Shown here: positions 2,142 to 40,029 of the stretch, one piece after another
How the letters are laid out: each line of letters starts with the position of its first letter
How positions within the stretch are numbered: the stretch's first letter is position 1
Assembly: GCA_961205875.1 (NCBI GenBank)
Contig: OY540816.1
Coordinates: 5,218,701-5,282,700, forward strand
DNA: 64,000 nucleotides
Source of the DNA: Sialis fuliginosa
Lineage: Eukaryota; Arthropoda; Insecta; Megaloptera; Sialidae
Direction of reading: 5' to 3'
Translations under genes and position numbers: made by a program
The notes under the pieces: model-generated
Databases searched by the model: none
What the model was told of the DNA's origin: nothing
The model's input: only the letters and a program-made list of their open reading frames with translations

Positions 2142-2293
2142 TCAGGTAGTTAGGGCGGCGCAGATGTGCGAGACACTGTCTAGGTCCTCCGGTGTCGCCT
2201 GTCGGAGTGCGACCGTCACAGAGTTGTCGAACAGGCCGCTAGATGTCAACCGAACCGTCACAGCCTCGCAGAACAGAGTGTGGCTTCTATTCT
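2142..2293 (-). CDS. CRHBP: CRF-BP terminal exon f (fifth disulfide loop, stop)
   Basis: The acceptor ctgttacag ends at 2294. With the G from exon e the frame gives ENRSHTLFCEAVTVRLTSSG, then LFDNSVTVALRQATPEDLDS, then a short tail HICAALTT and TGA at 2142-2144. The motif C-x-x-x-T-V-R-L-x-S-S-G with a following N-S-V-T-V strand matches the vertebrate C-terminus (V-R-M-V-S-S-G-K-x-x-N-R-V-T-F). Residues 9 and 45 are family cysteines 9 and 10. An Asn-Arg-Ser sequon is at residues 2-4. A second possible AG acceptor two bases downstream would break the phase. No canonical AATAAA was seen on the minus strand in the 400 bp after the stop. Confidence 0.94.
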
Positions 2294-2339
2294 CTGTAAC
2301 AGAATATCATTCGTCAGTTCCAATTTGATTTATTACGTA

Positions 2340-3351
2340 CAGTGGCGTAGTAAGAAACATTTGGGGGGGGGGGGTTAAGCTTGGGGCGTTCATTAGTGTT
2401 CTCCAGCGATTAGTACCAAAAAATATATTTTTTCCTTTTTTCTCGTTTTCAAAGTTATCGTGATTTGCATAATTTTTTCATCGAATTTAATCTAGTAAAT
2501 AGCCTTTAATTTAGTTTTCGACGTAACCTTCAAAAATTCGAAGAGATTTTAGCATATTGTCGCGTGGTGTTCTCGCCACGTGCTTTCGCGTAAAATTATG
2601 CTTGAGGACAGAAGTGGGCCACTGCATTGACGTTCTGTTTTGACATTTATTGTTTTTTTATGAACCAATCAAGTGGTTTTATTAATTAATTTGAATGTTT
2701 TAGCGATCATGCCACCAAAAAAAGATAAACCGACTGGCGTTAAACCCATCGACTACGATAAATTGCTTGGTGCTATAAAGCAACTTCACTTTATTTTGTA
2801 TATTTTTGAAGCAATATAATAAACAATATCACACATGAAAATTGGTTTTTACAATTTAATTTCTTAAAAAAATTATTAATTTAACATAAAAAAACACAGT
2901 GCCTGATCCTTTTGCTTGTTTTAGATGAAAAACTTGGGTGGCCCACTTGTCTGCAAAATCGTGAAATCGCAAATTTCTATTTTTTTAAATAACGATGTAA
3001 AACGATATGTTAAAATAAAAATTTTCAAAATCTGTGTTTGCAGACAGTTAGGTTAATCCTTACTCTGCAAATAGACGCAATAAGTGTGGAAATATATTAA
3101 TTTTTGAACATTTTATAGCATGAAAACCAAAGTGTGGCCCACTTATATCTGTACTACTCTAGTTATTGAAGACCTTTTTTTTTTAGTCCTATAATTAATG
3201 TAAGTGCAGTTGTGCAGTTAACTATATGATAAAAAAAAAAAAAAATCATTCAATTCAAAATTATTATAATTATTTCGCATATTTTAAGAACACTGAATAT
3301 TTCGGGGGGGGGGGGGGGGGGTCGACCCCCCACCCCGTTCCTACGCCACTG
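2340..3351. mobile_element. nonautonomous hAT element, 1012 bp, in CRF-BP intron e-f
   Basis: CAGTGGCGTAG at the left and CTACGCCACTG at the right are perfect 11-bp inverted repeats of the hAT type. The target site ATTACGTA is duplicated exactly (2332-2339 and 3352-3359). Long G runs sit just inside both ends. The interior has three spaced copies of an AAGTGGGCCAC motif (near 2611, 2940 inverted and 3135 inverted). A 36-codon ATG frame is at 2709-2819. No transposase domain is seen. A heavily deleted relative is at 57452-57593. Confidence 0.9.
2709..2819 (+). CDS. small hypothetical frame inside the hAT element
   Basis: ATG to TAA encodes 36 residues beginning MPPKKDKPTGVKPIDYDKLL. The start resembles the basic N-termini of some transposases, but no domain is recognisable. 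The frame is preceded by an otherwise unexplained, less AT-rich stretch (2560-2640). It may be a leftover 5' piece of a transposase or of a captured gene. I do not claim that it is expressed. Confidence 0.25.
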   Translation: MPPKKDKPTGVKPIDYDKLLGAIKQLHFILYIFEAI

Positions 3352-3480
3352 ATTACGTATACCTAATATTATCAGTGCAGTGTTCTAGAATATTACATGA
3401 ACGTTATAACAGGGTCTTGCTTCTGTTCTCTGAACAAAATAATATCATTCGTCAGTTCCAATTTGATTTATTACGTATAA
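3352..3480 (-). pseudogene. partial tandem duplicate of the exon f acceptor region (decoy acceptor)
   Basis: On the minus strand the intron stretch from tacgtaataa to acgaatgatatt (about 37 bp, 3440-3477) is repeated identically next to exon f (2303-2339). In both copies it leads into a 3' splice site (gttcag here, gttacag at exon f) followed by AGAA, an AGAAGC and a CTGTT. The duplicate therefore carries an acceptor and about 23 nt resembling the exon start. Read in the exon f phase it gives E-N-R-S-K-T-L-L and then TAA. Similarity also extends about 15 bp further upstream (TGATAATATTA). Without the hAT insertion between them, the copies would be about 116 bp apart. Confidence 0.8.
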
Positions 3481-3605
3481 TATTATCAATACTGTATTGC
3501 AGAAAATATGAAGGATTGGAAATTGTGTGCTATATAACACACGAGAAAAAGAATTGTCGATGACACGAAATATTTCAAGAATATTATTATTATTTTTAAA
3601 TGCTC

Positions 3606-4157
3606 AGCTACACAAAAAAGTGCGGAACCAAAAAAAGACATATAGCATTGTAGTATTGGTCGAGCATAATCGAAATACAAATTTTTGGAATTTTCTGCTT
3701 ACCAGTTTTTTTTAAATTTAAGCTTGAACTCAGGTTGAATAATTCCAAAAAAGAGGGGGATACCAAAAAGCGACCTATATAGCAGTGTAGTATTGGTCGA
3801 GCATTGTCGAAATCCAAATTTTTGGAATTTTTTGCTTACCAGTTTTTTTTTAATTTAAGCTTGAATTTTGGGTTTAGCCAACATGGAAAAATTCAACCTA
3901 AACCCAAAATTCAAGCTCGAGTAAAAAAAAACTGGTAAGCAAAAAATTCCATAAATTTTGTTTTCAACTATGCTTGACCAATACTACAATGCTATATAGG
4001 TAGCTTTTTTGGCATCCCCCCACTTTTTTGGAAAAATTCAACTTAAACCCAAAATTCAAGCTCAAAAAAAACTGGTAAATAGAAAATTCCAAAAATTTGG
4101 ATTTCGACTATGCTCGCTTATTTTACTCCGCACTTTTTTATTTTTTTCGTGTAGTTG
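3606..4157. mobile_element. complex fold-back: tandem plus inverted units
   Basis: The outer ends are agctacacaaaaaagtgcgg and the reverse complement at 4120-4155. Inside, a unit of about 130 bp running from tagtattggtcgagca to cagtttttttt occurs twice in direct order (3650-3725 and 3788-3860). It then occurs twice in inverted order (3921-3995 and 4060-4115). The result is a four-unit palindrome. Confidence 0.7.
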
Positions 4158-5468: not shown

Positions 5469-6393
5469 TAAGAGCTGATTCCTTGGCTCTTTGTGAGTAA
5501 AAAATTGTACGGGAAGGTGGAGTCTATCTTCAACACTCTCTGAGCTACAGGATGTTTAAAAACTTCCTTCAGAGTAGTACTTACAAATAAAAATTATCTC
5601 ATAACTTCCAAAGTAACGTAACTAGAGCAACCACAATGAGTCAGTTTCATAAGTACTTAACTAACGTATTTTTCAGTATGAGCGTTATTGCTAGCCGTGT
5701 TTCCCGTTCAGAGTTATTGCTCATCAAAGTCAAAAAATATGTTTATTTTTTTGAAAATTTTTATGAAAATGACATTTTTCCCCAAAATTACCTATAATAT
5801 GTGGTATTTTTTATCATTGTTTTTGTGTGTCATAATGTTACCTACACATTCACTATACCAAGTTTGGACCTGGGTCTTACAATTTTCCAGTTATAAATTT
5901 ATCTAAATAATTCCTAAAGTGACCATTTTGTTACCTACCCAGGTCCAAACTTGGTAAAATGAATTTGTAGGTAACATTATGACACACAAAAACAATGATA
6001 AAAAATACCACATATTATATGAACTTTTGGAGAAAAATGTCATTTTCATAAAAATTAAAAAAAAAAATAAACATATTTTTTACTTTGATGAGCAATAACT
6101 CTGAACGGGAAACACGGCTAGCAATAACGCTCATACTGAAAAATACGTTAGTTAATTACCTATAAAACTGGCTCATTGTGGTTGCTCTAGTTACGTTACT
6201 TTGGAAGTTATGAGACAATCTTTGTTTGGAAGTACTACGCTGAAGGAAGTTTTTAAACATCCTGTAGCTCAGAGGGTGTTGAAGATAGACCCAACCTAGA
6301 CACCCCCCCCTTTACGTACAATTTTTTACTCACAATGAGCCAAAGAATCAGCTCTTAAAATATCTGTATCCCAAACCTGACCATCCTGTATAT
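5469..6393. mobile_element. long fold-back element with AGAGCTGATTC ends, copy 1
   Basis: The two arms of about 430 bp (5469-5890 and 5940-6355) are near-exact inverted copies around a spacer of about 50 bp. The arm ends are AAGAGCTGATTC and its complement. Beyond the right arm a tail (tatctgtatcccaaacctga to 6393) is shared with the second copy at 51969-52998. The tail preserves TTAA at the point where copy 2 has taken a piggyBac-type insertion. Confidence 0.85.
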
Positions 6394-8050: not shown

Positions 8051-8159
8051 CGGGCTGAGATTCCATTCCACAAATTGTGTCAATTGCTTCGAAATTACGA
8101 TTGTCAAGTCCACTTGATCCGCCTATTTGAACATAATCTTCTAGTCCTCTTTTGTTGCA
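8051..8159 (-). CDS. CRHBP: CRF-BP exon e (fourth disulfide loop)
   Basis: This short exon was found by looking for the expected continuation of exon d. The acceptor is atcttgttacag and the donor is gtaatt. It encodes CNKRGLEDYVQIGGSSGLDN then RNFEAIDTICGMESQP, plus one base. The block G-x-x-D-Y/F-V-x-x-G-G-x-x-G-L-D is diagnostic for this family. Residues 1 and 30 are family cysteines 7 and 8. The entry phase 0 and exit phase 1 fit exons d and f. Confidence 0.95.
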
Positions 8160-9962: not shown

Positions 9963-10141
9963 TTTGTGAATGATTCCTGTTTCTATTTCAACATTTGGGT
10001 TAGCGGCTCCTGATAGTCCAACACTCATGGCTTCGATGCGGACCGCTGCCGGGAACAGAGCCGTCATACTGCAGTTACTAGCGCGTCCATAGTTACGCAA
10101 CGTGTACACTTCCTCGATGTTCTGGATTAGCACGTGACAAG
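9963..10141 (-). CDS. CRHBP: CRF-BP exon d (third disulfide loop, glycosylation site)
   Basis: The acceptor is tatttttgtag and the donor is gtaagc. With the C carried from exon c it encodes 60 residues starting PCHVLIQNIEEVYTLRNYGR and ending ETGIIHK. Family cysteines 5 and 6 are residues 2 and 24, 22 residues apart as in vertebrates. The Asn-Cys-Ser sequon at residues 23-25 sits where the vertebrate protein carries its N-glycan. The exon ends in phase 0, and exon e starts in phase 0. The inverted terminus of an outer repeat (10190-11652) lies 48 bp upstream of the acceptor. Confidence 0.95.
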
Positions 10142-25058: not shown

Positions 25059-25269
25059 GGGTCGGGTTCTTGATGAATCTAACGGTGAGTCTGAATCCGG
25101 CCCCGCGTCCTGGCGGCCGGTACTGAACAAGCGCCGCATTCTGAGCTGTAACGAACGCGTGCTGCATCTTGCGACGACCACAGAACTCAACAAACCGCTG
25201 CTCGGCCGGTCTCGGGTGCTCATCTACCGACGGGAACAACTGCCCGTTCAGCTCCCATCCGTCAACGAA
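25059..25269 (-). CDS. CRHBP: CRF-BP exon c (CUB-like core, VDGWELNG motif)
   Basis: The acceptor is ctgtgtgcag and the donor gtaagtat is a near-ideal insect donor. It encodes 70 residues plus one base, beginning FVDGWELNGQLFPSVDEHPR. This matches the family motif F-D-G-W-x-L-x-G-x-x-F-P-S-x-x-D-H-P. Cys 30 of the exon is family cysteine 4, 37 residues after cysteine 3 in exon b. The end, GFRLTVRFIKNPT, matches the G-F-T-L-T-I-K strand. The exon is clearly GC-richer than its flanks. Several open frames on the opposite strand here are shadows of this exon. The inverted-repeat element 22638-25036 ends 22 bp inside the intron next to this donor. Confidence 0.97.
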
Positions 25270-35365: not shown

Positions 35366-36168
35366 TAGGTTTCCGTAGAAAACTAGGAAACCTTATAGTT
35401 TCGCCATGTCCGTCCGTCCGTCCGTCCGTCCTCAAAAATTTTAAGCCGATTAACATGAAATTTGGTATACGGACGAAGACTGATAACCTTAGAGTTTTGC
35501 CATGTTGTCCGTCCGTCCGTCCGTCCTCAAAATTTTTAAGCCGATTAAGATGAAATTTGGTATACGGACGAAGACCGATAACCCAAAAACATAAATGATA
35601 ATATTTTTGAAAAAAAAATTTTTTTTGGACCTTTCCATAGACTGAAAAGTATTTTCAAAAAAAAAATTTTACTTAATACATTAAGTGGGGTGTCTTTAGA
35701 TAGGTCTCCTAAAATGCAATAAAAAATGTAATTTGACATTTTGATTTTAACCCAGTCAGTCACGCTATATTTGCGTTCAAAGTCGTGATCAAAGCGTCCC
35801 CCCACCCTAATTTCTAAACTATCAATTTTAAAAATCTGAAAAAATTCAAGAATATAGCTTTTAAATAGTACTTCCACTGAAATATATAACGAACACTGTC
35901 AAAATTATTTTGGACGGGAGGGGGTCCCATAGACAGAAAAGTGAACTCACTTTTTTTTTCACTTAACCCATTGAGTGGGATGTCATTAGATAGGTCTCCC
36001 AAAATACAACAAAAAAAGTTATATGACCTTTTGATTTTAACCCTTCAGTCACGATATATTTGCATTTAAATGTTATCAGAGCGTCCGTTGAAATAACTCT
36101 TGTTTATAAATCGTAATGACTACGGAAACCTATAATGTGCGTGCCCAACACGCACTTGGCCGTTTTAT
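35366..36168 (+). repeat. AGGTTTCCGTAG family repeat, copy 2
   Basis: It begins aggtttccgtagaaaactag and ends gactacggaaacctataatg then gtgcccaacacgcacttggc. A (GTCC)n tract plus its downstream 60 bp is tandemly duplicated (35408-35475 and 35508-35580). The inverse copy at 49901-50560 and the interior of the hAT at 21224 belong to the same family. Confidence 0.75.
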
Positions 36169-39862: not shown

Positions 39863-40029
39863 CGAAACTAGTCCTCCTTTTTGGCACGGTACATCTACAT
39901 ATACAAAATGTACTTCTATACGTTTATCAGGATCCGCGAATAAATACAGCCCACACACTTTTCCCTCTTCCCAGTCCGGTCCTGCTTTGTAATAGTAAAC
40001 CCCTTCGTCAGATCTCACGTCCATACATT
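39863..40029 (-). CDS. CRHBP: CRF-BP exon b (first disulfide loop, start of second)
   Basis: The acceptor is ttttttgcag and the donor is gtaagt, directly below 39863. With the G from exon a it encodes 56 residues, starting ECMDVRSDEGVYYYKAG and ending VDVPCQKGGLVS. This aligns with the vertebrate stretch that begins C-L-x-M, passes through a second Cys in an aromatic context, and reaches a D-C-Q-G-G motif. Cys 2, 26 and 49 are cysteines 1, 2 and 3 of the family. The exon ends in phase 0. A fold-back repeat ends 26 bp below the donor. An ATG-initiated frame that continues past the donor into the intron is an artefact. Confidence 0.95.

What the first reader, a model, noticed from the sequence alone, without database searches (positions are those of the whole stretch)
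2293..3480. Duplicated 3' splice site in front of the terminal CRF-BP exon, later split by a hAT element
The intron end and the first ~23 nt of exon f exist twice, about 116 bp apart if the hAT is removed. A scanning spliceosome meets the upstream copy first. Using it would give eight residues and a stop, deleting the last disulfide loop. The hAT then landed in the repeated TTACGTA stretch and pushed the copies about 1.1 kb apart, which may have favoured or disfavoured the decoy.
Basis: partly seen in the sequence, partly recalled or inferred. Interest (0 to 1): 0.75.

Follow-up and report, generated by a model that had tools for sequence, protein, structure and literature searches.

The report
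Duplicated splice acceptor in CRF-binding-protein gene
A stretch of about 116 bases spanning the last intron-exon border of a CRF-binding-protein gene was copied in tandem, leaving a second, complete-looking splice acceptor upstream of the real one, and mobile elements later pushed the two about 1.1 kilobases apart; the layout is real, but nothing here shows that the extra site is used.

Summary
On the minus strand the end of the last CRF-BP intron and the first 22 nt of the terminal exon occur twice: acceptor A (exon start 3429) and acceptor B (2293). With the inserted DNA left out, the copies form a head-to-tail duplication of 116-bp period (103 aligned columns, 14 mismatches). Joined to exon e, B gives the ten-cysteine C-terminus; A gives ENRSKTLL-stop and loses cysteines 9 and 10.

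The "hAT" is composite: a hAT MITE (8-bp target duplication; 4 of 4 sisters inspected have one too) with an unrelated, left-truncated inverted-repeat element nested inside (2387-3161). The nested element's seven inspected sisters are 95-98% identical, so the 1.1-kb spacing looks recent.

A and B score alike as acceptors and share an identical 39-nt branch-point block. This hints at constraint on both, but is post hoc and without relatives. Near-adjacent tandem duplications occur elsewhere in the window, so the event is ordinary. Most likely B is the main site and A at most a minor decoy. A real switch, or interference between acceptors, is untested; RNA-seq or RT-PCR would settle it.

The parts
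2142..2293 (-). CRF-BP terminal exon f, coding part with stop, starting at acceptor B
   Evidence: Pfam CRF-BP_C in the spliced product
2272..2339 (-). Copy B of the duplication, part on the exon side of the insertion (exon 2272-2293, intron end 2294-2339)
3360..3401 (-). Copy B of the duplication, part on the far side of the insertion
3408..3512 (-). Copy A of the duplication, uninterrupted
3404..3429 (-). Sequence that would follow acceptor A: seven full codons after the split one, then TAA
3451..3455 (-). CTGAC branch-point-like motif of A (motif recalled)
   Evidence: sequence
2313..2317 (-). CTGAC branch-point-like motif of B (motif recalled)
   Evidence: sequence
2332..2339 (.). Target-site duplication ATTACGTA, left
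3352..3359 (.). Target-site duplication ATTACGTA, right
2340..2386 (+). hAT MITE, left part
2387..3161 (+). Nested terminal-inverted-repeat element, left end missing
3162..3351 (+). hAT MITE, right part
2646..2795 (-). Three AATAAA motifs in the nested element (minus-strand starts 2795, 2683, 2651)
   Evidence: only AATAAA and ATTAAA were sought
8051..8159 (-). CRF-BP exon e, donor CCG|GTAATT
9963..10141 (-). CRF-BP exon d
   Evidence: no Pfam match on its own
25059..25269 (-). CRF-BP exon b
39863..40029 (-). CRF-BP exon a

Best explanation
A tandem duplication of 116-bp period copied the 3' end of the last CRF-BP intron together with the first nucleotides of the terminal exon. The downstream copy (B) stayed joined to the full exon and is the acceptor that makes CRF-BP. 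The upstream copy (A) keeps a branch-point-like motif, a pyrimidine tract and CAG, but leads to a stop after eight residues. A hAT MITE then inserted into the intronic part of B, upstream of B's branch-point motif and tract; later a second inverted-repeat element entered the MITE, and its left end was lost with some MITE sequence. Shown: the duplication, the insertion anatomy, the reading frames and the relative order. Inferred: B is the main acceptor, because exon f keeps an open frame and both last cysteines; A is at most a minor decoy.
For: Alignment and adjacency of the copies. The spliced B form matches Pfam CRF-BP_N (7.2e-22) and CRF-BP_C (1.8e-9, 38.4 bits); the A form keeps CRF-BP_N and drops CRF-BP_C to 21.4 bits, under the cut-off of 25. 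8-bp target duplications in 4 of 4 MITE sisters inspected. Nested-element sisters L002-L008 at 95-98%, main MITE pieces of L009-L012 at 79-90%. One exon f in 94 kb around the gene; next-best hit E 0.084. Four other nearly adjacent tandem repeats in the window.
Against: A scores about as well as B (6.34 against 5.64, recalled matrix). The 39-nt block around the branch-point motif is identical in both copies, against 7 mismatches in 33 aligned positions upstream of it. More than trivial use of A is therefore not excluded. No RNA evidence was available for either site.
Confidence: 0.72

Rival explanations
1. A is a genuinely used alternative acceptor. Part of the transcripts join exon e to 3429 and give a CRF-BP without its last cysteine pair, perhaps ending at a polyadenylation signal in the nested element.
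For: Complete acceptor signals at A, score similar to B; identical 39-nt block (chance of no mismatch near 0.013 if only B were constrained); AATAAA motifs downstream of A and before exon f at 2795, 2683 and 2651; weak-looking exon e donor.
Against: No RNA evidence. The block was chosen after it was seen, and the stretch next to the AG differs (3 of 9 aligned positions and 2 gap columns). Many AG sites in the intron score higher than A. The product would be truncated within the C-terminal domain.
Confidence: 0.2
2. The two acceptors interfere: both are occupied at once, which slows splicing of the last intron, and the insertion, by spacing them, eases or worsens this.
For: An engineered globin pre-mRNA with its 3' splice site duplicated bound factors at both sites and spliced poorly (PMC5389562, abstract and section 12 read). 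A and B are nearly alike.
Against: That work used strong mammalian sites in vitro; nothing here measures occupancy or splicing.
Confidence: 0.06
3. Assembly artefact or haplotypes joined end to end.
For: Near-identical 36-nt blocks beside long runs of G and C.
Against: The copies differ by 14 of 103 aligned positions with 9 gap columns, only 22 nt of exon f are repeated, exon f itself occurs once, and the insertion has a matching target duplication. The contig is 23.9 Mb long.
Confidence: 0.02

Closest known systems
Novel introns by small tandem duplication in Drosophila (PMC2891723, passages read)
   Same: A short tandem duplication inside a gene doubles splice-site sequence.
   Different: There a proto-splice site in coding sequence is doubled and a new intron arises; here an existing acceptor is doubled and no new intron is implied.
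Engineered globin pre-mRNA with a duplicated 3' splice site (PMC5389562, abstract and section 12 read)
   Same: Two near-identical acceptors on one intron.
   Different: Artificial, mammalian, strong sites; here natural, 14% diverged, and spaced by mobile elements.
Drosophila transformer acceptor choice (recalled; one search gave a search listing only, no paper on it was opened)
   Same: An upstream acceptor leading to an early stop and a downstream one giving the full protein.
   Different: No regulator site or RNA evidence here, and the two acceptors are sequence duplicates.
hAT MITEs (features recalled)
   Same: 8-bp target duplications, terminal inverted repeats, short.
   Different: This copy holds a second element and has lost sequence.

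Membership tests
CRF-binding protein | Match to CRF-BP_N and CRF-BP_C profiles above cut-off | tested here: met
   78 and 38.4 bits, cut-offs 25. Exons alone: f 14.1 and a 22.4 bits, under cut-off; b 48.3; d none
CRF-binding protein | Ten cysteines (five consecutive disulfides; PMC9601729, passages read) | tested here: met
   Ten counted in the B product, eight in the A product; bonding not testable
hAT MITE | 8-bp target-site duplication | tested here: met
   ATTACGTA on both sides; 4 of 4 sisters L009-L012
hAT MITE | Terminal inverted repeats | tested here: met
   2340-2353 / 3338-3351, 14 nt, 93% complementary
hAT MITE | Autonomous hAT partner with transposase in the genome | not tested
   No search made
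Alternative 3' splice site pair | Both acceptors used in RNA | not testable with these tools
   No RNA data
Alternative 3' splice site pair | AG, tract and branch-point-like motif at both sites, no AG between motif and acceptor | tested here: met
   Sequences: CTGAC about 20 nt before each CAG
Mutually exclusive duplicated exons | Whole exon duplicated | tested here: not met
   22 nt of exon f duplicated; one exon f in 94 kb
Intron gain by tandem duplication | Doubled AG/GY proto-splice site giving a new intron | tested here: not met
   The unit carries an existing acceptor and intron end

The most novel reading that the evidence does not exclude
A natural duplicate of a 3' splice site sets the balance between full-length CRF-BP and a form without the last disulfide loop, or throttles last-intron splicing by double occupancy, and successive mobile-element insertions have retuned that balance by changing the spacing and adding polyadenylation signals.
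Probability: 0.1. Interest if true: 0.6.

Novelty: new member of a known kind. Interest (0 to 1): 0.3.

Why it matters
It is a clean natural case of two near-identical acceptors on one intron, where one copy also serves as the empty-site control for the insertion in the other. If RNA shows use of A, it is a simple system to ask how acceptor distance sets splice choice; if not, it shows how readily a complete-looking decoy is tolerated.

Tried and rejected
Dispersed repeat: not seen as far as searched. In the one answered genome search (51 matches, 40 of 1354 candidates scored) the host parts of the query matched only their own place; short weak copies could be missed. Separate genome searches for the core and for copy A alone, and for CRF-BP paralogues, did not complete, so paralogues are untested.

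Whole extra terminal exon: not found within 94 kb (next-best hit E 0.084).

RNA structure: the two acceptor regions fold no better than shuffles (z -0.33 and -0.21). In the 1137-nt fold the element ends pair with each other (no shuffles are offered at that length). No Rfam family at gathering score. The frame in the nested element: no Pfam family. No CRF-BP relative in viral contigs (exact peptide patterns only). Solved structures: two matches, best E 0.8, taken as chance. Genome contigs was not scanned. No structure was predicted.

Papers: nine answered searches, seen as listings with the starts of abstracts; no title listed reports a duplicated CRF-BP acceptor. The library is open-licence only and listings were capped, so this does not show that none is in print.

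Full report
What was claimed.

The gene. The minus strand holds exons a (40029-39863), b (25269-25059), d (10141-9963), e (8159-8051) and f (2293-2142); the frame runs through every joint. The spliced product matches Pfam CRF-BP_N (7.2e-22) and CRF-BP_C (1.8e-9) and has ten cysteines. Ten cysteines in five consecutive disulfides is the pattern reported for CRF-BP (PMC9601729, passages read). Taken alone, exons f and a fall below their Pfam cut-offs and d has no match. The exon with the signal peptide was not sought. The organism was not identified; its assembly has 392 Mb in 20 contigs. That it is an insect is an impression, not a test.

The duplication. With the insertion and one target-site copy left out, copies A (3512-3408) and B (3401-2272) align head to tail: 103 aligned columns, 14 mismatches, 9 gap columns. 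The score is 64.5 against a maximum of 26.5 in 2000 random window pieces. The 36-nt core has no third copy in the window at up to three mismatches. A self-comparison listed 15 direct repeat pairs within 1500 bp (30 nt or more, E up to 1e-4); this pair is one, and four others are nearly adjacent, with gaps under 5 bp and lengths of 57-289. Such an event is therefore not unusual here.

Consequences of use. Exon e ends in the first base of a split codon. With B the protein continues ENRSHTLFCEAV...HICAALTT; with A it continues ENRSKTLL and stops. The A form has eight cysteines, and its CRF-BP_C score falls from 38.4 to 21.4 bits, below the cut-off of 25.

The insertion. The inserted 1012 bp (2340-3351) is flanked by ATTACGTA. 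The genome search showed two layers. The outer parts, 2340-2386 and 3162-3351, belong to a MITE; four sister copies (L009-L012), 248-404 bp long as cut, have 8-bp target duplications in 4 of 4, as expected of hAT (recalled). The inner part, 2387-3161, belongs to another family with inverted terminal repeats that begin TAGAGTAG. In the three sisters inspected at the left end (L002, L003, L006) it goes on about 150 bp further left, so the window copy is truncated there, and at least 16 bp of MITE are missing too. I could not settle its target duplication: one sister suggests 5 bp, the other two show none. Besides the window's own copy, 26 near-full-length matches at 93-98% are listed. L002-L008 are at 95-98%, while the main MITE pieces of L009-L012 are at 79-90%, with one short secondary alignment at 74%. 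The likely order is duplication, MITE, nested element, loss of its left end. Copy A has the same ATTACGTA without insertion and serves as the empty site. The opposite order, insertion first and precise loss from A, is less simple but not excluded.

Strength of the two acceptors. With a matrix of recalled insect-like frequencies, A scores 6.34 and B 5.64; the four other acceptors of the gene score 1.76 to 11.36. Of 245 AG sites over 8030-2201 (the last intron plus the start of exon f), A ranks 20th and B 28th, so the matrix singles out neither. Both have CTGAC about 20 nt before the CAG with no AG between. Exon e's donor, GTAATT, looks weaker than the GTAAGT or GTAAGC of the other three.

Uneven divergence. 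The 39 nt around the branch-point motif have no mismatch; of the 33 aligned positions upstream 7 differ, of the 9 between block and exon 3 differ, and of the exon part 4 of 22. If the upstream rate were neutral and only B constrained, no mismatch in 39 has a chance near 0.013. The longest match run, gaps ignored, is 48, with a permutation p of 0.0009. This hints at constraint on both copies or at gene conversion. But the block was chosen after it was seen, there is one pair only, and the tract beside the AG is among the most diverged parts.

How it most likely works. B makes CRF-BP; A is a tolerated decoy with at most minor use. Two rivals deserve a test: real use of A, perhaps with polyadenylation at AATAAA motifs at 2795, 2683 or 2651 in the nested element (after exon f the nearest hexamers found are ATTAAA at 1806 and AATAAA at 1512), and interference by double occupancy, as seen with an engineered globin substrate (PMC5389562, abstract and section 12 read).

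Verdict. A real and well-preserved event of an ordinary kind. Interest would rise if RNA shows junctions to 3429.

Noticed in passing
2387-3161; sisters L002-L008: Apparently young inverted-repeat element family, 26 other near-full-length matches at 93-98%, with a short frame from 2709 starting MPPKKDKPTGVKPIDYDKLLGAIK that has no Pfam match; perhaps a remnant of a larger element.
   Followed up: partly
8051: The exon e donor CCG|GTAATT looks weaker than the gene's other donors, so the last intron may splice variably in any case.
   Followed up: no
3640-4116: Block of tandem and inverted repeats (arms 3747-3852 / 3922-4027, 85% complementary) in the same intron just upstream of acceptor A; a likely foldback element.
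   Followed up: no
5520-6310: Long palindromic stretch: similar peptides are read on opposite strands at 5591-5906 and 5903-6311.
   Followed up: no
35389-35583: Clean 95-bp tandem duplication at 93%.
   Followed up: no
2363-2374 and 3304-3336: Runs of G and C near the two MITE ends. The inverted ends pair in the predicted RNA fold and would bring A and B closer, though the right-hand G-rich run pairs with its own C run there.
   Followed up: partly
27721, 30180, 57452: Further matches to the MITE terminal CAGTGGCGTAG at 0-1 mismatch, possible other copies or ends.
   Followed up: no
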